Shown: positions 1 through 22,711 of the stretch, in pieces
Layout: every line of letters starts with the position of its first letter
Position numbering within the stretch: the stretch's first letter is position 1
Assembly (NCBI RefSeq): GCF_001677275.1
Contig: NZ_CP016178.1
Span: 1-64,000 of the forward strand
Length of the DNA stretch: 64,000 nt
Source: Vibrio breoganii
Lineage (GTDB): Bacteria; Pseudomonadota; Gammaproteobacteria; Enterobacterales; Vibrionaceae
Direction of reading: 5' to 3'
The notes under the pieces: model-generated
The model's database searches: none
The model's input: the letters and a program-made list of their open reading frames with translations, nothing else
Told to the model about the DNA's origin: nothing
Program-made: the position numbers and the translations under genes

Positions 1-1977
1 TCAAGTGCCTGATGCGATCTCTCTCAGCACTCGCATAACGGTTTCATCATAATGGCCTTCTAGGATCTGGCGACACACTTTACGCCTAACCGCTAATCCC
101 AAAATCAATCGCTCGATCGTTAGATGTGCGCCCGAAGAATCTTGATTGTACAACTCGATAGTACGACTCAGCGCCTCATAGCTGACAACCTTGTCCCCTA
201 CCCTCAGCCAATCTAGCTTCTCTAACAGCTCCTGACACTCTTCTCTGATAGAAGTAGGTGAGTGTCCGGTCATTGCTGATAAAGCCGTTATACTGCGTTC
301 TAGAGCTTCTGGAGAGGTATATTTGGTTAAGCTGATGGTGATCTCTTCAGCATTGATTTCAACCAGGTGCTTACGCAGCTTCACGCGACGACCCAGATTC
401 CCTCTTGGTGACGACTTTTTACGTTGAATAGGTTCAAACTCGCCATCGATGATCTCCGCCAATTCCTCAAGCTTTTGCTTAGACACCATTTCATGTCTAA
501 GTGGATTGGGCAGCGTTGGCGCCATGTTACGTTTACCCGCGTTGGTAGTACGAGCCCTCGCGTAGCGAACCACTTCTTCTGCGTTGCACTTAATATCTAC
601 TTGGTAATCTTTGACCTTACCTTTTGGCTCCAATGCGCTTAACGTCAGGTGATAACCCCATAAATTCACCACAAACAGTTCGTCGTTACCCTTGCCTTTA
701 GAGAGTTTCTTCAGCTCTCTAAGCAAATCCATTGAGAAGCGCCGCCATTCGATATTGCGCGCAAGCTTTTGATTTAACTCACTAAGTAGCATCATATCAG
801 AAGAGCGACGTGACATACGGCTCCTGAAGTAGGAATACAACTGGAACACCAAGGTATGCTGGCGAAGGATTTCTGGTGGGAACAAGAAGAAGTAATCTTT
901 AGTCAGCAACTCCTCATAAAACGATGGCTCCCATACCAAGATATACAGGTTTGGTTTTATTTTTATCTCACCAGCTTCATTTTCGGTTGGAGCCTCTTCA
1001 GACGCGGTAATGGTTCGCGCTAGAAAACGGAAGCGATCACTCTTAAAGCCTTCGGGCATGTTCTCGCTTAACCACTGGCCTGTGAGTTCGTGCAGTTGGA
1101 AGTCCGTGTATTCGATGCGATCAATGCTATCGCGAATAGAATCGCGTGCAGGTCCGCTGTCCTTTTTTCCCCTCAAAGAGAGAATATCCGTGATATACAA
1201 AGGGGTTTTATTAGGCGCTACCTGAGCATTAATGTGGTAGTTATCTTGGTGATGATCATGGTATTGCACGGTTAGCGTAAACAAGGCAAATAACGTCATA
1301 AGATCATCAACTGTCATGATGTTTTTTGACGATCTCGTTTCGATAACAGCTCGTGTACCAGAGATCGAAACCATTGATTTCTGGTAATTTTTCCGTGTTC
1401 TTGGTGGCGCTAACGCTTGATCAATGATGCCAGCCCAGTTAGTCGGTGAAACAACAAACTGTTCAGCTTCGTCCAACATTGCTGGTGGATTATTCAATCC
1501 ATGCTCGCTTAACAGCTGCTTGTTAACGTGTGTTTGAGCAAGCGCCTGGGTCTTTTTCTTCTTGGCCGTCGTCTTGGTGGATTCGGTTTGTAAGCTTCCG
1601 GTACCTAATGCAGTGATAAGCAATGATGGGTTGACGAAGTGATGCAGCATAGTCTTGCCCGCTAGGCCAGTTTCAAACCTAACCGGTGTTTGTTTGAATA
1701 AACCAATGTTTACTGCGGCTCTAAGGCGTTGTTGGATTGCAGCCCTAGTGATTTGTCCATCTGTGGCATCAATTAACTCTGTTGTCGAAACAAGACCGTC
1801 TTTGCTAGTCATGCCACGTAGAGAAATCAGATTAAGTAATTCAACTATGCTTTTGGTAACACCCTTGAAGTGTTGATACTGTTCTATCCATTCAACGGCG
1901 TTGTTGTTAACTTCAAATAAATGTCCATCTTTATGACTTCGAGGTTGTTTTATCAGGATCTTGTCTTCGTTGGTCAT
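1..1977 (-). CDS. rctB: RctB, chromosome II replication initiator
   Basis: RctB is the Vibrionaceae-specific initiator that binds the 12-mer and 39-mer sites of oriCII, opens the origin and represses its own promoter. The 658-aa product has the length I recall for Vibrio cholerae RctB, and the gene is divergent from parA2 across a GATC-rich origin, which is the diagnostic arrangement. The protein is basic (for example KKKK near residue 138) and has no Walker motif, as expected for a non-AAA initiator. The ATG lies at 1977 and the TGA occupies the first three bases of the window, so the gene is complete. A 39-mer-like operator lies about 30-45 bp upstream of the start, suggesting autorepression. 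Identity is secure from family and context. Confidence 0.97.
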   Translation of the reverse strand: MTNEDKILIKQPRSHKDGHLFEVNNNAVEWIEQYQHFKGVTKSIVELLNLISLRGMTSKDGLVSTTELIDATDGQITRAAIQQRLRAAVNIGLFKQTPVRFETGLAGKTMLHHFVNPSLLITALGTGSLQTESTKTTAKKKKTQALAQTHVNKQLLSEHGLNNPPAMLDEAEQFVVSPTNWAGIIDQALAPPRTRKNYQKSMVSISGTRAVIETRSSKNIMTVDDLMTLFALFTLTVQYHDHHQDNYHINAQVAPNKTPLYITDILSLRGKKDSGPARDSIRDSIDRIEYTDFQLHELTGQWLSENMPEGFKSDRFRFLARTITASEEAPTENEAGEIKIKPNLYILVWEPSFYEELLTKDYFFLFPPEILRQHTLVFQLYSYFRSRMSRRSSDMMLLSELNQKLARNIEWRRFSMDLLRELKKLSKGKGNDELFVVNLWGYHLTLSALEPKGKVKDYQVDIKCNAEEVVRYARARTTNAGKRNMAPTLPNPLRHEMVSKQKLEELAEIIDGEFEPIQRKKSSPRGNLGRRVKLRKHLVEINAEEITISLTKYTSPEALERSITALSAMTGHSPTSIREECQELLEKLDWLRVGDKVVSYEALSRTIELYNQDSSGAHLTIERLILGLAVRRKVCRQILEGHYDETVMRVLREIASGT

Positions 1978-2004
1978 TTAGTATCCGTCTACACTTTATC
2001 GTAA

Positions 2005-2023
2005 CTTAATCATTGTTCCGTAT
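2005..2023 (+). promoter_or_regulatory. RctB operator in the rctB promoter (29-mer-like)
   Basis: The motif CTTAATCATTGTTCCGTAT lies about 30 bp upstream of the rctB start. It resembles the CTTGATCATYGWTCC core repeated in the distal part of the origin, but its GATC is changed to AATC. In V. cholerae a shortened 39-mer (29-mer) in the rctB promoter mediates autorepression, and this is the equivalent position. Confidence 0.7.
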
Positions 2024-2934: not shown

Positions 2935-3217
2935 TAAATTCTAATGAGATTAATAATTAGCCGATACTGGTAGTAATCCACTTATGGTAATTTTCAGTCA
3001 GTTTAGTTTCAGGCTGATTTGGGGGAATATCGAACCGCTAGCTAACAAAGGAGCATTGATTTGCAAATGACCGTAATTCATACAGTTCTTAACATCGTTC
3101 CGAAAACGCTCCGAAACATCCTGAGAACGTTTCTACGTAATCTATGTTATTGAGTGGGTTGACTCTAGATTTTGCCCTTTTCCCCTACCCCACGCTTATT
3201 TCACTAAAAATGAGTTC

Positions 3218-3230
3218 TTTACAATGTAAA
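3218..3230. other. parS2: parS2 centromere site upstream of parA2
   Basis: TTTACAATGTAAA is a perfect match to the Vibrio chromosome II centromere consensus TTTACA-N-TGTAAA bound by ParB2. It lies about 200 bp upstream of parA2, where ParB2 binding could also affect the operon promoter. Confidence 0.9.
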
Positions 3231-11749: not shown

Positions 11750-13644
11750 TCATTGTCATCCTTGGTGTCAATAGCGAAGCCTTGCAGTCCATTGACGTTA
11801 TGCATGGCTAACTTATTAATTTGTCTTTGGTTTTCTACTCTTGTGGCTATGACAAATGCGCCAATATCATGCGCGAGCTTGGCAACTGAAGATAAGGTTT
11901 CTGTGGTCTTTTCATCGTCTAGATTCAGAGTGAATAAGTAGTCTAGTTTGACGTAATCAGGTGAAAACTCTTGTAAGTAATCGAGAGATTTTAGGTGGTG
12001 CGCATAGTTGTCTACGCCAAATTTAGCGCCGCTGCGACGAATGGTAGACACCAATAGTCGAGTCATCTCTTTGTGATAAATGAACACGGCTTCATGCAGT
12101 TCGAAGTGCAGATACGCAGCAAGCAGAGGGTGTTTCTGCAGTCTATCCTCTAGCCATGTAATGAACTCTGGTGACGTTACCGTGGCAGGTGCTAGATTGA
12201 TTGCAACAGGAACTGGTGAACTGTCATTGCTAAGCTCCTTGATCATGCTTTCGATAATGTGTTGATCGTAGATATGTGCTTTGTTCATTTTTTCCATAGG
12301 CGCAAGGAACATAATCGCAGGAGTGTAGTTTCCTTCATGTTCAATACCCGAGAAAATTTCTCGATGATACGCATCACTGGCTATGCCTTTGACCAGTTGT
12401 GATTTGGTCATTACTGCATTGCGAGACATTGCACCTTCTACTAACTCTATCCATTGTGTAGCTGAAAGCGCTAACCCTTTGTTTTCATGGTGAATATATT
12501 GGTTACTCGGCTCCAGCTTAGCTTTTGTTAAAGAGATATCTACTGAGCTTAGAATGGATTTAGAATCTGCAAAGCCGTCAGTAATGACAGCGCCAATTTC
12601 AAACTTTGTTTCCTTTGCGGACTTGGAGAGGCTGGAGAGTTGCGCTAGAAGTTCGCTTAATTGCTGTTCGTCTTCATAAGGGGCAATGACACCTACTTCA
12701 TCATCGAGCAGGCGAGCACAGACTATGGAACTGTCGTTGGTCAATGTCTTAAGCGCAGGACCAACTCGCTGCATGAGTTCGGTTACAGCTTCAAAGTCAT
12801 GCCTTGTCTTGGCTTGAGTTGCTTCTTCATAACGGATAACCGCTACTACCAGCGTCTGTCCTTCAGAGTTTTTGGACTCAAGTTGACTGGTAAAGTAATT
12901 GCGATTACCCAGTGTGGAGGGTTTATCGATAAAGGCTTGTATGCGCAGAATATCGGCTTGTCTGGTTTGTTCTTCAACAAAGGCTTTTATACGAATGACC
13001 ATTGACTCAAATGCATTAAATACAGGAACTAGATCTTGTGTATCAGGCTTACTCAATGAAATATTGAAATCCCTATTAGCGATTTGAGTTGCCGCGCCTG
13101 AAAGTTGATTCAAGGGCTCAAGAGATCGTTTGACGAAGAAACTAGTGAGCAGTAGAGCAAAAAGAAAGGCTGCGATACCCACACCCAGGGTAAATTCCAT
13201 ATTCCTCCAAAGCGCCGCATAAGCGACGCCTGGGTGGCTTATTATTTCAATCTCTGCTAGCTGTAACCATCCACTGGTAACGACACGTTTCTCATGAATG
13301 GTTTGAAAGATATCTAGTTCAACCAGCCAGTTAGGTGCATTCTCACCTCTAATGGGATAGCTTCTTACTATCTCATCACCCGTTTGTAGCATTACCACTC
13401 TGACAGAAGAAAAAGAGCTCCCGTCAAATAGGGCATTGACCGCTGTTTCTACAGCGACCGGATCATTGTCTTCTAGGTAGGGAGAGAGAGCGAGACCGAC
13501 AGTATTGATCGCATTCTTCACCTCTGAAAATTGCTTCTGTGCAATGAATTGACGGGATTGGTGATAATCGACGTAGAACAAACCTACAAACAATAAACTG
13601 AAGGTAAGTGAGATACTGATAAGCAGTTTTGTATATAAAGTCAT
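11746..13644 (-). CDS. lapD: LapD-like c-di-GMP receptor (degenerate GGDEF-EAL)
   Basis: LapD is an inner-membrane receptor that binds c-di-GMP and sequesters the protease LapG, so the adhesin stays on the surface. The 632-aa product has an N-terminal membrane helix, a periplasmic domain (about 25-150) and a second helix near 155-170. HAMP, GGDEF and EAL-like domains follow. LDDEV occupies the GGDEF signature, and no intact EAL signature is seen, so both enzyme domains look inactive, as in known LapD. Its position beside lapG supports the role. The start is ATG at 13644, 4 bp after the lapG stop. Confidence 0.9.
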   Translation of the reverse strand: MTLYTKLLISISLTFSLLFVGLFYVDYHQSRQFIAQKQFSEVKNAINTVGLALSPYLEDNDPVAVETAVNALFDGSSFSSVRVVMLQTGDEIVRSYPIRGENAPNWLVELDIFQTIHEKRVVTSGWLQLAEIEIISHPGVAYAALWRNMEFTLGVGIAAFLFALLLTSFFVKRSLEPLNQLSGAATQIANRDFNISLSKPDTQDLVPVFNAFESMVIRIKAFVEEQTRQADILRIQAFIDKPSTLGNRNYFTSQLESKNSEGQTLVVAVIRYEEATQAKTRHDFEAVTELMQRVGPALKTLTNDSSIVCARLLDDEVGVIAPYEDEQQLSELLAQLSSLSKSAKETKFEIGAVITDGFADSKSILSSVDISLTKAKLEPSNQYIHHENKGLALSATQWIELVEGAMSRNAVMTKSQLVKGIASDAYHREIFSGIEHEGNYTPAIMFLAPMEKMNKAHIYDQHIIESMIKELSNDSSPVPVAINLAPATVTSPEFITWLEDRLQKHPLLAAYLHFELHEAVFIYHKEMTRLLVSTIRRSGAKFGVDNYAHHLKSLDYLQEFSPDYVKLDYLFTLNLDDEKTTETLSSVAKLAHDIGAFVIATRVENQRQINKLAMHNVNGLQGFAIDTKDDNE

Positions 13645-17261: not shown

Positions 17262-19100
17262 CTAGAAGCGGTAGTCGATACCCGCATAGTAACTACGCTC
17301 AGGGCCTACATAATCGAAGCCACCCCAACCTTCAGAGGTTTCGTATTCTTCATCCAGCATATTCAGTACCTTGAACTTAGCATCTAGGTTTTTGGTGATT
17401 GCATATTGCGCCGCGAAGTCAAAAGTAATGTAGCTATCTAAAGTCTTGGTTGCGTCTGGGCGCTCGCCGACATAGATAGTGGCTAAGCTCATATTCAATG
17501 CATCGTAGCTATACGCCGCGATCCACTTGTAGTTCTGTTTAGCACGTCTTATTAATTGCTGACCCGTTGTTTTGTCTTCAGGATCGCTCCAATCAGCACT
17601 TAATACATGATTAACAGGACCGGTATCAAAATCGACGGAAACCTCAATTCCTTTTACCTCGGCTTCGTTGATGTTTTTAAGTGAGAAGCTCGAACTGTCC
17701 CAGATAATAAGGTTATCGGTGTTTGTTTGGTATGCTGTTACGCTCCAAAACGCCCATGAGTGATAACCAGAGAAACCAACTTCAAGTGATTCTGATTCTT
17801 CTGGCTTTAGATCCTTGTTGCCACCCAGACCATAAAGGTCGAAGAAGGTAGGTGCTCTAAACGCTGTTCCATAGTTAGCGGTAAACTGTATCTCTGGAGT
17901 GATAAACCAAGCAAGTCCTGCGCCCCATGTGGTGTTGCCATCGTACGCGCTGTTTTCGTCATGTCTTACATTCGCTTCCAATGTAACAGGGTCTAAGTTG
18001 ACATTGCCCCCAACAAAAACGGCGGTGTTGTTGCGCGTGTTTTCATCAAAGTCGCTTACGGGGAAACCACCCGATACCCCTGTATTGCTCGCCTCTTCAT
18101 ATGAGTAATCAACGCCACCAATAAGGTCGGTATTTTCTATACCCTTATAATGGTTCACCCAAAGTACAGATGTTCGTTTTGATTCGATGAAGGACTTGAG
18201 GGAGTTAGTTCTATCTGGGCCGTCAGTCTGAGTTTCCTGAGAAAAGCTTACCTGCAAGTTTGAGTTGAAATCATCTCGAGCATAATCGACATTACCAGAG
18301 ATAATGTAGGCTTCAGTTTCTTGTTTGTTTGGCAGGCTGACAGGATCATTTCCTACATATTGATTCTCATAGTTTTGATAAACACCGTTAAAGCCAGCAG
18401 ACCAATTCGAGTCTATATGCTTGGTCACGCCACCTGTTAGAAACTGAGAGTCAAAGCCATAGTCGTTATCCGTTGGCTGGCTGGTGATATTGTAGCCCTT
18501 GCTTCCTTCGTTGCTTACCACAAAGCTGCCGTGGCTGGTGTCAGAAAGTTCACCTGCAGAGCGCCAACCTTCTTGATGGTAGTTATTAGAGCCACCATTT
18601 AATGTCAGTTCATGTACAGAAGACTCTTTATTGTTGGTCGTGATACTTATGACCCCACCGATGGCATCGGCTCCGTAAACAGCAGCACGTGGCCCTCGAA
18701 CAAGTTCAATTCGTTCAATGGCAAAAGCAGGTATCAAGCCAAGGGTGTTGGTTGTACCACCAGCTGCGGTATTGAGTCGCACGCCATCGAGCAGCACTAG
18801 TGTTTGGTTACTATTGGCACCACGAATAAAGATGCTACTAGTGGAGGCTTTGGTTCCCTGAGAAACGACTTGTACACCAGGTAGTGTCTTTAACACATCA
18901 TAGGCGCTATCCGCTTGCAGTTGCTCTATTTGTTCACGTTCAACAACGCTAACAGAGGCCAATGCAGAGGTTTGAGTTTGTTCAAAGCGGTTTGCTGTGA
19001 CAACGATGGTTTCATCAACTTCTGTTGAATCAGTATCTTGAGCAAAAAGTGCAGGGGCATACAGCGAAACAATAGCTGTTGCCAGAATGGATTTTTTCAT
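17262..19100 (-). CDS. btuB: BtuB-type vitamin B12 TonB-dependent receptor
   Basis: This outer-membrane receptor imports cobalamin using TonB energy. The 612-aa product has a signal peptide (about 1-20, ending ALFAQ), a TonB box ETIVVTANR near residue 30, and a plug domain (about 45-160, with SSIFIRGANSNQTLVLLDGVRLN). A 22-strand barrel follows and ends in the aromatic YRF. Length matches E. coli BtuB (614). The start has AGGA six bases upstream. A cobalamin riboswitch with an attenuator hairpin lies in the leader and identifies the substrate. Confidence 0.94.
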   Translation of the reverse strand: MKKSILATAIVSLYAPALFAQDTDSTEVDETIVVTANRFEQTQTSALASVSVVEREQIEQLQADSAYDVLKTLPGVQVVSQGTKASTSSIFIRGANSNQTLVLLDGVRLNTAAGGTTNTLGLIPAFAIERIELVRGPRAAVYGADAIGGVISITTNNKESSVHELTLNGGSNNYHQEGWRSAGELSDTSHGSFVVSNEGSKGYNITSQPTDNDYGFDSQFLTGGVTKHIDSNWSAGFNGVYQNYENQYVGNDPVSLPNKQETEAYIISGNVDYARDDFNSNLQVSFSQETQTDGPDRTNSLKSFIESKRTSVLWVNHYKGIENTDLIGGVDYSYEEASNTGVSGGFPVSDFDENTRNNTAVFVGGNVNLDPVTLEANVRHDENSAYDGNTTWGAGLAWFITPEIQFTANYGTAFRAPTFFDLYGLGGNKDLKPEESESLEVGFSGYHSWAFWSVTAYQTNTDNLIIWDSSSFSLKNINEAEVKGIEVSVDFDTGPVNHVLSADWSDPEDKTTGQQLIRRAKQNYKWIAAYSYDALNMSLATIYVGERPDATKTLDSYITFDFAAQYAITKNLDAKFKVLNMLDEEYETSEGWGGFDYVGPERSYYAGIDYRF

Positions 19101-19125
19101 TTTGAGTCCTAATACGCGTAGTGAT

Positions 19126-19149
19126 AAAAACGCTTATGTTTGCGTTTTT
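19126..19149 (-). terminator. Attenuator hairpin of the btuB riboswitch
   Basis: On the minus strand AAAACGC and GCGTTTT form a stem ending in a T-run, between the riboswitch core and the btuB start. It is the likely expression platform: cobalamin binding would favour termination. Confidence 0.75.
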
Positions 19150-19345
19150 TCTTACTGGCAGGTATTCGGACTAATGAGCACTGTAGAGGAACCCCTACAA
19201 CCTAGCGTCTCACTTCCCGCAATAGACTATTGCAGTGTGCTGGGTTACCCCTTAAGACGTTCGTTCTCAAATACCGCTGCGCGTCAGTTTTGGATTCACA
19301 CCAAATTCCCTTTTAAGCCTGAAATCTCTGATTTCATGACACCAG
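19150..19345 (-). ncRNA. Cobalamin riboswitch (AdoCbl class)
   Basis: The minus strand has the ordered landmarks of the B12 riboswitch: AAAGGGAA then GGTGTGAATCC (complement of about 19292-19314), ACTGACGCGC, then a central region and the 3' part GTCCGAATACCTGCC (complement of about 19156-19170), equivalent to the GCCAGGAGACCTGCC box. It lies just upstream of btuB. Confidence 0.93.
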
Positions 19346-19446
19346 CGGGGGGAGATTTTATAGAGTGTTAAAGGGGGTGTCTAGTTCCCTGAAACACTTG
19401 TTAAATGTGACGAAATGTAATGTTAAGTGGCTGTAATCACATTTCT

Positions 19447-19465
19447 CTTGATCATTGTTCCGTAT
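19447..19465 (+). promoter_or_regulatory. RctB-operator-like site upstream of putA
   Basis: CTTGATCATTGTTCCGTAT differs at one base in 19 from the operator at 2005-2023 in the rctB promoter. It lies 76 bp upstream of the putA start and 17 kb from the origin. It could be a distal RctB-binding site. The match is seen in the sequence; the function is inferred. Confidence 0.55.
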
Positions 19466-19540
19466 TCTTTGCTATGGCTAGTGCTGCTCTGTAGGATTGT
19501 CGCCAAATTCATGGTGGTTTTATAGAGCTGAGGAAAAGCA

Positions 19541-22500
19541 ATGTTTACAGCATCTAGTGTTTTAAATCCCGATTTCATTAACCAACCCAAAGAGACACTT
19601 TGGTCTCTCATTTCACCTATGTATATGGTGGATGAATCGGCTTGGTTGAATGAGTTATTAAAGCTAGCGACACCTCTTGAAGAGGAAAAACAGCGCACAA
19701 AACGTCAAACTACGGCGCTAATTGAAGCGATCCGCGCCGATAAGCGCTCAATCCAGATGATTGACGCCCTATTGTTGGAATACAGCCTAGATACGCAAGA
19801 AGGCATTTTGTTGATGTGCCTTGCCGAAGCATTGATGCGTATTCCTGACTCTGAAACCGCCGATGCCCTAATTAAAGACAAGCTTACTGTAGCCGATTGG
19901 AAGTCTCACCTGAGCCAGTCTGATTCTGTATTTGTTAATGCTTCTACTTGGGGTTTAATGCTGACTGGTAAGGTGGTTGGCGTTAACAACCAAGAAACAA
20001 CCAGCCCAAGCTCTGCGCTGTCGAAGCTAGTGAACAAAATGTCTGAGCCAGTAATTCGTAAGGCAATGCACCAAGCGATGAAGGTCATGGGACACCAGTT
20101 TGTTCTGGGTCGTGACATTAAAGAAGCACAGAAAAACGGTGCGCCATTGCGTAAGAAGGGGTTTACTCACTCTTTCGATATGTTGGGTGAAGCTGCTTTA
20201 ACCTCAGAAGATGCACAAAAGTATTTCAATGATTATTTGATGGCGATCGAGTCTGTTGGTCGAAACAAACAAAATGATGACTCAAGCCCTGCGCCCTCTA
20301 TTTCGATCAAACTGTCCGCATTGCATCCTCGCTATGAGGTGGCAAACAAAGAGCGCGTCCTTAACGAGCTTCATGATACCTTGATCAAGCTATTAACTCG
20401 CGCTATCGAGTTGGATGTCGCCATCACCATTGATGCAGAAGAAGCAGATCGTCTTGAATTGTCTCTACAGCTGTTTGAGAAGGTCTACACCAACGATCTT
20501 GTTAAAGGCTGGGGTAAGTTTGGTCTGGTGATCCAAGCGTATTCTAAGCGCTGCTTACCGGTTCTGGTATGGGTGAATGCCTTAGCCAAAGAACAAGGCG
20601 ATCTTATCCCACTGCGTTTGGTTAAAGGCGCGTATTGGGACAGTGAGATCAAATGGTCACAGCAGGCGGGTTATGCAAACTACCCTGTCTACACTCGCAA
20701 AGAAGCCACTGATATGTCTTATCTGGCGTGTGCTCGCTTTTTATTGAGCGACGGTGTGCGTGGCAATATTTTCCCGCAATTCGCGAGCCACAATGCTCAT
20801 ACCGTTACCGCTATTGCAGAGATGGCTGAGCATACCGACTATGAGTTCCAGCGCCTGCATGGCATGGGCGACTCGCTCTACTACCATGTGATGGAAAAAT
20901 ATGGCCAACCTGTACGCATCTACGCGCCAGTAGGAAGCCATAAAGACTTGCTGCCTTACTTAGTGCGCCGCCTACTGGAAAATGGTGCTAACAGCTCGTT
21001 TGTACATAGATTGGTTGATGCCCGTTGTCCGGTTGAAGACCTAACGCACCACCCTGTTGATACCTTGTTAGGTAATGAAACCTTGCACAATGATCAGATC
21101 CCGCTTCCACCGCAGATCTTCGGTGAGCGCGTGAACTCTATCGGTATCAATGTGGATGTTGAGAGTGAAGCGATGCCTTTTGAACAGCAAGTGGTTAGCT
21201 TCCTTGCTAAGCAATGGCAAGGCGCTCCAATCATCAATGGATCTATGATCTCTGGAACTATGATCAAGGAAGAAAGCGTTGTTGCGCCTTTTGATCGTAG
21301 TGTAACGGTAGGTAAGATCGGGTTTGCAAACCTTGATCATGTTTCCGATGCGATTACCTCAGCCCAGTCTGGCCTTGAGCACTGGAGATATACACCGGTT
21401 GCTCACCGTGCTGAGTGTCTGAGAAATCTAGCGGATAAGCTAGAAGAGAATCTTGCTGAATTGGTTGCCCTTTGTCATATGGAAGCGGGTAAAACCATTC
21501 ATGACAGCATTGATGAGGTGCGAGAAGCCGTTGATTTTTGTCGTTACTATGCCGACAATGCCACTCATCTTGGTCCTGAATCTATTCAAGGCTTTGATGG
21601 CAATCTGCAATGGTGTGAGAGACATGGGCGTGGCGTGTTTGTCTGTATCAGTCCATGGAACTTCCCACTAGCTATCTTCCTAGGTCAAATATCGGCAGCA
21701 CTTGTTGCGGGCAATACCGTTGTGGCCAAGCCGGCTGAGCAAACCAGCTTGATTGCGGCTCGAACTGTTGAGTTAATGCTGGAATCTGGTTTCCCTTCTG
21801 ATGTCATTCAATTCCTACCCGGGCGCGGTGCAGAGATTGGCTCTGCCTTGACTTCTCATCCTGCCATTGCCGGTGTGGCGTTTACTGGCTCTACCGCAAC
21901 CGCTAAGCGAATTAATCTATCTTTGGCTGAGCGTGATAGCCAACCGGTTCCGTTCATTGCTGAAACGGGCGGTCAAAATGCAATGATTGTCGATTCAACG
22001 GCGCTTCCTGAGCAAGTGGTTCGCGATGTAGTACGCAGTGCGTTTGCTTCGGCAGGCCAGCGCTGCTCGGCGCTACGCGTATTGTTTGTACAAAAAGACA
22101 TAGCGCCAAGAATTACTAAGCTGATTCAAGGTGCAATGAAAGAGCTCAGCGTAGGCCTACCTTATTTGCACAGTACAGATGTGGGTCCTGTAATAGATGA
22201 GCTTGCACAGCAGAAATTACTCGCACATATCGAGACGATGCGCAAAACCCAGAAAGTGGTTGCTGAAGTTGAATTAGACGAGCAATGCAATGCCGGTATG
22301 TATGTACCACCTACCGCAATCGAGATCAGTGATATCTCTGTGTTGGAAGAAGAGCAGTTTGGTCCAATCTTGCATATCGTACAATTCGAGGCGAGCCAGA
22401 TCGCAGAGGTCGTAGACAAGATTAACACTACGGGCTTTGGTCTAACCATGGGTATTCATTCTCGCAATGAAACCACTTATCGTTGGATTGAGGAAAATGC

Positions 22501-22711
22501 TCGAGTGGGCAACTGCTATATCAACCGTGATCAGGTGGGTGCTGTGGTAGGCGTTCAACCTTTTGGTGGACAAGGGCTATCAGGCACAGGTCCAAAAGCG
22601 GGTGGGCCAAACTATTTGTATCGCTTTACGGAGCATGTATGTCGAAACCGCCAGGTGGCGGATTCAGCACAGACGCAACAATCTTCGCAAACTGATGAGC
22701 AAGGGGTATAG
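19541..22711 (+). CDS. putA: Bifunctional proline dehydrogenase / P5C dehydrogenase
   Basis: PutA oxidises proline to glutamate in two steps. The 1056-aa product has an N-terminal helical part, a FAD-dependent proline dehydrogenase barrel (about 180-480, with RLVKGAYWDSEIK) and an aldehyde dehydrogenase domain (about 560-1030). The latter has ISPWNFPLAIFLGQ, FTGSTATAKRI, the ETGGQNAM segment and the catalytic cysteine in FASAGQRCSALR. The N-terminal DNA-binding ribbon-helix-helix of E. coli PutA (1320 aa) is absent, so it should not repress itself. The C-terminal extension of long PutAs is also missing and may be the next gene. The ribosome site is GAGGAAAAGCA. Confidence 0.95.
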   Translation: MFTASSVLNPDFINQPKETLWSLISPMYMVDESAWLNELLKLATPLEEEKQRTKRQTTALIEAIRADKRSIQMIDALLLEYSLDTQEGILLMCLAEALMRIPDSETADALIKDKLTVADWKSHLSQSDSVFVNASTWGLMLTGKVVGVNNQETTSPSSALSKLVNKMSEPVIRKAMHQAMKVMGHQFVLGRDIKEAQKNGAPLRKKGFTHSFDMLGEAALTSEDAQKYFNDYLMAIESVGRNKQNDDSSPAPSISIKLSALHPRYEVANKERVLNELHDTLIKLLTRAIELDVAITIDAEEADRLELSLQLFEKVYTNDLVKGWGKFGLVIQAYSKRCLPVLVWVNALAKEQGDLIPLRLVKGAYWDSEIKWSQQAGYANYPVYTRKEATDMSYLACARFLLSDGVRGNIFPQFASHNAHTVTAIAEMAEHTDYEFQRLHGMGDSLYYHVMEKYGQPVRIYAPVGSHKDLLPYLVRRLLENGANSSFVHRLVDARCPVEDLTHHPVDTLLGNETLHNDQIPLPPQIFGERVNSIGINVDVESEAMPFEQQVVSFLAKQWQGAPIINGSMISGTMIKEESVVAPFDRSVTVGKIGFANLDHVSDAITSAQSGLEHWRYTPVAHRAECLRNLADKLEENLAELVALCHMEAGKTIHDSIDEVREAVDFCRYYADNATHLGPESIQGFDGNLQWCERHGRGVFVCISPWNFPLAIFLGQISAALVAGNTVVAKPAEQTSLIAARTVELMLESGFPSDVIQFLPGRGAEIGSALTSHPAIAGVAFTGSTATAKRINLSLAERDSQPVPFIAETGGQNAMIVDSTALPEQVVRDVVRSAFASAGQRCSALRVLFVQKDIAPRITKLIQGAMKELSVGLPYLHSTDVGPVIDELAQQKLLAHIETMRKTQKVVAEVELDEQCNAGMYVPPTAIEISDISVLEEEQFGPILHIVQFEASQIAEVVDKINTTGFGLTMGIHSRNETTYRWIEENARVGNCYINRDQVGAVVGVQPFGGQGLSGTGPKAGGPNYLYRFTEHVCRNRQVADSAQTQQSSQTDEQGV

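What the first reader, a model, noticed from the sequence alone, without database searches (positions are those of the whole stretch)
19447..19465. Copy of the rctB operator 17 kb away, upstream of putA
CTTGATCATTGTTCCGTAT (19447-19465) matches 18 of 19 bases of the operator at 2005-2023 in the rctB promoter. The one difference restores a GATC Dam site that the rctB copy lacks. It lies 76 bp before putA. It may be a distal titration or pairing site for RctB, or it may put proline catabolism under replication-initiator control.
Basis: partly seen in the sequence, partly recalled or inferred. Interest (0 to 1): 0.72.

Follow-up and report, generated by a model that had tools for sequence, protein, structure and literature searches.

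The report
Conserved satellite sites for chromosome-2 initiator
A short DNA site in front of the proline-degradation gene of this Vibrio looks like a docking site for the protein that starts copying the second chromosome; it is found once per genome in most of its relatives, and two partner sites are written into the proline gene itself so strictly that even its silent letters are nearly frozen.

Summary
The 19-mer at 19447-19465 is 18/19 identical to the rctB-promoter site, and in the 4.49 Mb genome all five places within 3 mismatches lie in this window.

It is one half of an RctB "39-mer" (19425-19463, minus strand): GGAAC, 20 bp, TTACAG, with an iteron ATGATCAAG nested inside. That is how V. 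cholerae RctB site chrII-10 is described (PMC3937223), and a V. cholerae-group genome has the version with TTACGG before AraC-putA.

The exact composite occurs once in 249 of 329 Vibrionaceae genomes and never twice; reversed control 0. It usually sits before an AraC-family gene, 1.0-1.6 kb before putA. It survives loss of AraC (this window), of putA, and of both. So it is probably not a putA operator by origin.

Two more iterons lie inside putA (21253-, 21332+). Over 117 Vibrio putA genes they are the two most silently constrained stretches of the gene. By spacing they match V. cholerae chrII-5/-6.

Best reading: an RctB-binding satellite locus that restrains Chr2 initiation, known in V. cholerae, here shown to be old and constrained. 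Proline control by RctB is unsupported but untested.

The parts
19425..19463 (-). Composite RctB site: 39-mer form (GGAAC, 20-bp spacer, TTACAG) with nested iteron ATGATCAAG; counterpart of V. cholerae chrII-10. Overlaps the reported 19-mer 19447-19465
   Evidence: upstream of Vibrio putA all 97 YTACRG boxes found within 3-44 bp of a core are at spacing 20; B box is TTACAG here, YTACGG in most species
1993..2021 (-). 29-mer form of the same site in the rctB promoter (GGAAC, 10-bp spacer, TTACGA)
   Evidence: matches the layout of the V. cholerae 29m sequence given in PMC11711613 section 7
3065..3103 (-). ori2 39-mer (GGAAC, N20, TTACGG), no GATC inside
21253..21268 (-). Iteron A inside putA (codons 572-576, usually GAA AGC ATG ATC AAG; here GGA ACT ATG ATC AAG); probable counterpart of one of V. 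cholerae chrII-5/-6
   Evidence: within 2 mismatches in 115 of 117 Vibrio putA
21332..21347 (+). Iteron B inside putA (codons 598-602, CTT GAT CAT GTT TCC); probable counterpart of the other of chrII-5/-6
   Evidence: within 2 mismatches in 115 of 117 Vibrio putA
12238..12253 (+). Iteron-like site inside a lapD-like GGDEF/EAL gene; among 30 lapD genes compared, exact only in the window and its 3 closest relatives
19541..22711 (+). putA, bifunctional proline dehydrogenase / P5C dehydrogenase gene that hosts iterons A and B
   Evidence: relatives in 222 of 227 Vibrio genomes
1..1977 (-). rctB, Chr2 replication initiator, the presumed binding protein
   Evidence: relatives in 223 of 227 Vibrio genomes

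Best explanation
The 19-mer belongs to a composite binding site for RctB, the Chr2 initiator: a 39-mer (inhibitory class) whose spacer carries a Dam-site iteron. With two iterons inside putA it forms a satellite RctB-binding locus, the counterpart of V. cholerae chrII-10, -5 and -6. Most likely it works by binding RctB away from ori2: it titrates the initiator and may bridge to ori2 iterons (handcuffing), so that once the locus is copied soon after ori2 fires, a second initiation is less likely. Shown here: the anatomy, rigid spacing, single copy per genome, conservation in 7 of 13 genera of the family, and extreme silent-site constraint in putA. Shown by others in V. cholerae: RctB binding and replication inhibition by chrII-10, -5 and -6. 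Inferred: that these are the same loci, and that RctB binds them in this species.
For: Anatomy: GGAAC-N20-TTACRG with nested ATGATCAAG. Upstream of 117 Vibrio putA there are 144 GGAW..TGATCA cores; a YTACRG box follows 97 times at spacing 20 and never at another spacing from 3 to 44. Exact composite in 249 of 329 Vibrionaceae genomes, at most one each, reversed control 0 of 329; simulated upstream regions give 0 in 1200. G091, a V. cholerae-group genome with the exact published 29m ([quoted passage not shown] Using its spacing, iterons A and B fall near 1,024,976 and 1,024,884 on V. cholerae chrII, inside the published 1024390-1025604 fragment that holds chrII-5/-6 (my arithmetic). The 6-codon windows 571-576 and 597-602 are the two most silently constrained of 740 scored over 117 putA (mean H/H0 0.047 and 0.071; window mean 0.843, sd 0.115; next 0.468). 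The composite survives without AraC (window clade), without putA (G031) and without both (G161, beside the same PEGA-domain gene as in V. mimicus, 67% identical), so the site itself seems to be what is kept. In the own genome 10 of 16 matches to CTTGATCATNNTTYCG (up to 1 mismatch) lie in the first 21.4 kb of C2 (reversed control 6).
Against: No binding or replication experiment exists in this species. In this window the B box is TTACAG, not TTACGG, so the 39-mer half may be weak. The nested iteron reads ACTGATCA in G207 and G075. The composite is lost in 6 of the 11 genomes with the closest PutA, and no genome of genus g2 (0 of 14) has the exact pattern, so it is dispensable. In V. cholerae deletion of chrII-10 had no growth phenotype (PMC3937223). 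In 9 of 61 genomes it lies more than 100 kb from rctB, up to 435 kb, which weakens an early-duplication model. Position check: in G091 the composite is about 40.7 kb from the 29m, while the published coordinates imply about 44-45 kb in N16961 (chromosome length and rctB position recalled), so the strains differ or the match is not exact. The supplementary site tables could not be read.
Confidence: 0.72

Rival explanations
1. RctB (or another protein reading the same motif) is a transcriptional regulator of the downstream gene: the AraC-family gene in most species, putA directly in this clade, possibly by looping to the intragenic iterons as auxiliary operators.
For: The site is close upstream of a start codon: median 104 bp to the AraC start (extrapolated from alignment, range -77 to 1448), 75 bp to putA here. 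The 29-mer represses rctB in V. cholerae (PMC6090056 passages). In 5 genomes the site is kept directly before putA although AraC is gone.
Against: The composite persists in G161 without PutA and without a close AraC relative (best 29% identity) and in G031 without putA. In 7 genomes AraC and composite lie together away from putA while the intragenic iterons stay. No sigma-70-like promoter was found on the + strand at 19100-19700 (weak test). RctB changed one of two other tested genes weakly and the other not (PMC11711613 section 6).
Confidence: 0.15
2. The conserved sites are bound by a different DNA-binding protein whose motif resembles iterons, and the link to RctB is coincidental.
For: Binding was not measured here, and the motif carries a Dam palindrome that other factors can read.
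Against: Same two-box geometry (10 and 20 bp) at rctB and ori2; V. cholerae chrII-10 bound purified RctB in both iteron and 39-mer modes (PMC3937223 passage); one exact composite in 196 of 227 Vibrio genomes, 223 of which encode RctB.
Confidence: 0.05
3. The putA-internal conservation is protein-level or codon-bias constraint, unrelated to DNA binding.
For: The residues ESMIK and LDHVS are themselves conserved in Vibrio (0.96 and 0.98; gene mean 0.86).
Against: Synonymous choices are frozen too (of the sequences with the main residue: ATC 115/115, AAG 113/114, CTT 111/113, TCC 113/116). Flanking residues vary (0.65-0.74). All 12 non-Vibrio PutA examined lack LDHV, and neither peptide shows in the printed stretches. 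In lapD, ESMIK is written with the iteron codons in 4 of 30 genes and with other codons in 4 more; 22 have nothing within 3 mismatches.
Confidence: 0.03
4. Chance match or relic of duplication of the rctB operator.
For: The 19-mer alone is short.
Against: 0.02 expected against 5 found; conserved geometry and single copy across the family.
Confidence: 0.03

Closest known systems
V. cholerae chrII-10 RctB site (Baek and Chattoraj 2014, PMC3937223)
   [quoted passage not shown] outside ori2; V. cholerae-group genome G091 has a full copy (TTACGG) before AraC-putA about 41 kb from ori2; binding and replication inhibition shown in V. cholerae.
   Different: Here AraC is lost, so the site is 75 bp before putA and 17.5 kb from rctB; the B box is TTACAG instead of TTACGG.
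V. cholerae chrII-5 and chrII-6 iterons (PMC3937223)
   Same: Two iterons about 3 kb further from ori2 than chrII-10; iterons A and B of putA fall on that place by spacing.
   Different: The passages read do not say that they lie in a gene or that silent positions are constrained.
RctB 29-mer operator of rctB
   Same: GGAAC and TTACG boxes; shares 18 of 19 bases with the reported site.
   Different: 10-bp instead of 20-bp spacing, and no intact GATC in the spacer here.
E. coli datA (functional analogue)
   Same: An initiator-binding locus near the origin that restrains re-initiation (as discussed in PMC3937223 passages).
   Different: Binds DnaA; no sequence relation claimed or tested.
crtS on Chr1
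   Same: Another RctB site outside ori2, conserved in Vibrio.
   Different: On Chr1, enhances initiation, and has no likeness to iterons or 39-mers (PMC6090056 passages and PMC11711613 section 6). Not looked for here.

Membership tests
RctB 39-mer class | GGAAC box and TTACGG box separated by 20 bp (10 bp in the 29-mer) | tested here: met
   GGAAC-N20-TTACAG in the window, one base off TTACGG; all 97 YTACRG boxes found near cores in relatives are at spacing 20
RctB 39-mer class | RctB binds it independently of Dam methylation | not testable with these tools
   reported for chrII-10 in PMC3937223 (passage)
RctB iteron (12-mer) class | TGATCA core with Dam GATC in an ATGATCA context | tested here: met
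   nested iteron and putA iterons A and B
RctB iteron (12-mer) class | methylation-dependent RctB binding | not testable with these tools
   known for V. cholerae iterons (PMC6090056 passages)
[quoted passage not shown]
   (the window copy has 1 mismatch, so it is not among the exact matches)
chrII-10 locus | same chromosomal place as the published site | tested here: inconclusive
   spacing to the putA iterons fits; distance to ori2 in G091 is 40.7 kb against about 44-45 kb expected; N16961 itself was not available
chrII-10 locus | inhibits Chr2 replication | not testable with these tools
   reported in V. cholerae (PMC3937223 passages)
putA operator | conserved with putA across species | tested here: not met
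   persists without putA in G031 and G161; lies with AraC away from putA in 7 genomes; lost from 6 near relatives that have putA
putA operator | overlaps a promoter | tested here: inconclusive
   consensus scan found none on the + strand

The most novel reading that the evidence does not exclude
A replication initiator dictates part of the amino-acid and codon sequence of a metabolic enzyme across a genus. Two RctB iterons are written into putA under near-absolute silent-site constraint, and with a single-copy composite site that is older than the genus they form a conserved control locus for second-chromosome copy number, perhaps also coupling proline catabolism to Chr2 replication.
Probability: 0.55. 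Interest if true: 0.75.

Novelty: new member of a known kind. Interest (0 to 1): 0.62.

Why it matters
RctB sites outside ori2 have been described in one species, with small or no effects when removed one at a time. The data here say that one of them is kept once per genome, with fixed geometry, in 249 of 329 Vibrionaceae genomes, and that two others freeze the silent positions of a metabolic gene across Vibrio. Selection is therefore strong somewhere, and the site list gives exact bases to recode in a harmless Vibrio to find out what for.

Tried and rejected
Considered and set aside. (1) putA operator as the origin of the site: rejected as the main account because the composite follows the AraC locus and outlives putA. 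(2) A genus-wide lapD iteron: the window 12238 site is exact at the homologous place in only 4 of the 30 lapD loci compared (30 of the 190 genomes that matched); it served as a negative control instead. (3) A named V. cholerae chr2 in the plasmid collection: 5 Vibrio records matched, none named V. cholerae. (4) The species of the window was not identified and not pursued. (5) AraC elsewhere in the own genome: none at E<=1e-15. (6) Supplementary tables of PMC3937223 and PMC11711613: no look-ups allowed, so the gene names of the published sites stay unread. (7) Folding, structure prediction and RNA models were not used; they do not bear on the question.

Of the 80 named putA loci, L031-L085 entered only the motif scan. 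Regions were fetched for 110 of the 222 genomes with PutA, chosen from the listed rows (one search does not list all). One of the 97 AraC-plus-site loci (L142) is counted through a companion site; its exact composite lies just outside the fetched stretch. The first distance table (56 genomes) had missed 5 genomes whose rows were listed; one search redoes it for all 61 whose composite and rctB rows were both listed and on one contig, the own genome included (rows copied by hand; both lists are capped). Papers: PMC11711613 abstract, outline, sections 6-7 and passages; PMC3937223, PMC3688505, PMC5395669, PMC6090056, PMC9201469 and PMC5854411 passages only; others only as search listings.

Full report
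Observation. The 19-mer at 19447-19465 and its 18/19 match at 2005-2023 are as stated; the difference creates GATC. Five matches with up to 3 mismatches occur in the window against 0.02 expected, and no others in the 4.49 Mb genome. With a looser 16-mer (CTTGATCATNNTTYCG, up to 1 mismatch) the own genome has 16 matches, 10 of them in the first 21.4 kb of contig C2; the reversed control gives 6.

Anatomy. Read on the minus strand, the rctB-promoter copy is GGAAC-N10-TTACG and the distal copy is GGAAC-N20-TTACAG. The V. cholerae 29m is printed in PMC11711613 as TTGGAACTATAGTGATATTACGGTAAGTG (section 7 read), i.e. GGAAC-N10-TTACGG; a 39-mer is the same site with 10 more central bases (PMC6090056 passages). 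The reported site is therefore a 39-mer-form RctB site, 19425-19463, whose spacer carries the iteron ATGATCAAG. An ori2 39-mer of the same spacing lies at 3065-3103.

Relatives near putA. I compared 117 distinct Vibrio putA loci. A composite within 2 mismatches lies within 3 kb upstream in 102 of 117: 97 of the 99 loci that also have an AraC-family gene there (V. mimicus protein: Pfam HTH_18 and HTH_AraC), and 5 of 18 without it. The 15 misses are one AraC locus without the site (L016), one locus cut by a contig end (L185), 7 loci where AraC and an exact composite lie elsewhere, and 6 near relatives of the window that have lost it (G098, G155, G128, G063, G047, G057; one search finds in them no composite, at most 2-mismatch sites, those fetched lying beside rctB). 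The five AraC-less loci with the site are the window, G035, G207, G075 (motif start 93 bp before the putA ATG) and G076 (136 bp). No AraC orthologue was found in these 11 genomes. Spacing is rigid: of 144 cores upstream of putA, YTACRG follows at 20 bp 97 times and at no other spacing from 3 to 44. Simulated sequence gave 0 composites in 1200 regions.

Whole genomes. The exact pattern (box spacing 20-21) is in 249 of 329 Vibrionaceae genomes, never more than one copy, reversed control 0; 7 of 13 genera have it. Recounted from the table, 196 of 227 Vibrio and 53 of 102 others have it; 0 of 14 genomes of genus g2 do. The window copy has one mismatch and is not among the 249. The site persists in G031, which lacks putA (none at E<=1e-5) but keeps AraC. 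It also persists in G161, which has only separate aldehyde-dehydrogenase-like matches to the C-terminal half of PutA and no AraC relative above 29% identity; there it lies beside the same PEGA-domain gene (67% identical) that flanks the site in V. mimicus. Over 61 genomes its median distance to rctB is 31.3 kb; 49 are below 60 kb, 3 between 60 and 100 kb, 9 above 100 kb. Shared synteny contributes to this closeness.

Iterons inside putA. A minus-strand iteron at codons 572-576 and a plus-strand iteron at codons 598-602 are each present within 2 mismatches in 115 of 117 Vibrio putA; misses are L124 and L173 for A, L111 and L120 for B. Synonymous codon entropy relative to gene usage averages 0.843 over 740 six-codon windows (sd 0.115); the windows at 571 and 597 score 0.047 and 0.071, and the next independent window, at the start of the gene, 0.468. 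Residues at the sites are conserved at 0.96 and 0.98 against 0.65-0.74 in the flanks and 0.86 over the gene. All 12 non-Vibrio PutA examined lack LDHV, and neither peptide shows in the printed stretches. As a control, in lapD the exact iteron is in 4 of 30 genes, 4 more encode ESMIK with other codons, and 22 have nothing within 3 mismatches; none of those codons is among the 14 most constrained listed for that gene. The whole gene shares one phylogeny, so a ranking within the gene is not an effect of relatedness.

Link to V. cholerae. [quoted passage not shown] These bound RctB in vitro and lowered mini-chrII copy number; deletion of chrII-10 raised the oriII/terII ratio without a growth phenotype. 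G091 has the exact published 29m (so do G031, G090 and G211), a Chr2 contig of 1,074,151 bases, and GGAAC AATGATCAAGTGCACATAAA TTACGG before AraC-putA. Its iterons A and B lie 3.04 and 3.13 kb further from ori2; carried to the published coordinates they fall at about 1,024,976 and 1,024,884, mid-fragment. VCA1072-1073 is listed as similar to PutA and PutP (PMC9201469 passage). The absolute distance to ori2 differs by roughly 4-5 kb between G091 and N16961, so identity is inferred, not proved.

Mechanism. Homology and the V. cholerae experiments favour an RctB satellite locus that binds initiator and restrains Chr2 initiation; titration and bridging to ori2 are both possible. Regulation of AraC or putA is not excluded, but the site outlives both genes. 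In this clade the changed B box (TTACAG) and the losses in six relatives suggest relaxed selection on the 39-mer half, while the putA iterons stay.

Literature. No paper of 5.39 million in the library holds both whole words RctB and putA; the word-start search and the searches showed no description of this conservation in the titles and abstract starts listed. Supplementary tables were not readable, so a gene-level listing may exist there. In PMC11711613, RctB ChIP-seq found 6 Chr2 regions, and of two other genes tested one showed no and one a weak RctB effect (section 6 read).

Noticed in passing
window 19140-19361 (-): Cobalamin riboswitch (Rfam RF00174, 78 bits) in front of a TonB-dependent receptor gene (17262-19100), divergent from putA; this pair occupies the putA upstream side where most Vibrio loci compared have the AraC-family gene.
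   Followed up: partly
window 3218-3230: TTTACAATGTAAA, an inverted repeat containing the parS2 half-site TGTAAA named in PMC3688505 (passage), close to ori2 and the following parA-like gene (gene label recalled, not searched); possibly a ParB2 site.
   Followed up: no
L019-L024, about 1.1-1.9 kb upstream of putA: Photobacterium, Salinivibrio and Enterovibrio loci have 3-5 iteron-like copies in a cluster, most on the opposite strand to the composite and often spaced 39-48 bp, with no RctB match at E<=1e-15 in the fetched stretch: a larger satellite array.
   Followed up: partly
G022, G029, G064, G086, G087, G088, G194, G215, G221: A second iteron-like site (GGAAGCATGATCAAGG...) lies 203 bp from the composite in these genomes, within 2 mismatches of the composite pattern; in L239 it falls at the 5' end of the AraC reading frame.
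   Followed up: no
L006, 1.33-1.35 kb upstream of putA; near-copies in L007, L009 and others: The composite is doubled head-to-head into a palindrome ATGATCATCGTTCCGGAACGATGATCAT in L006, near-perfect in several other species.
   Followed up: no
G000 C2:1343362-1343377 and C3:296915-296930: Exact CTTGATCATNNTTCCG motifs elsewhere in the own genome, one on the third contig; context not examined.
   Followed up: no
window 12238-12253: Iteron-like site in a lapD-like gene. G098, G155 and G128 also have an exact copy 5-7 kb before putA, though whether in lapD was not checked.
   Followed up: partly
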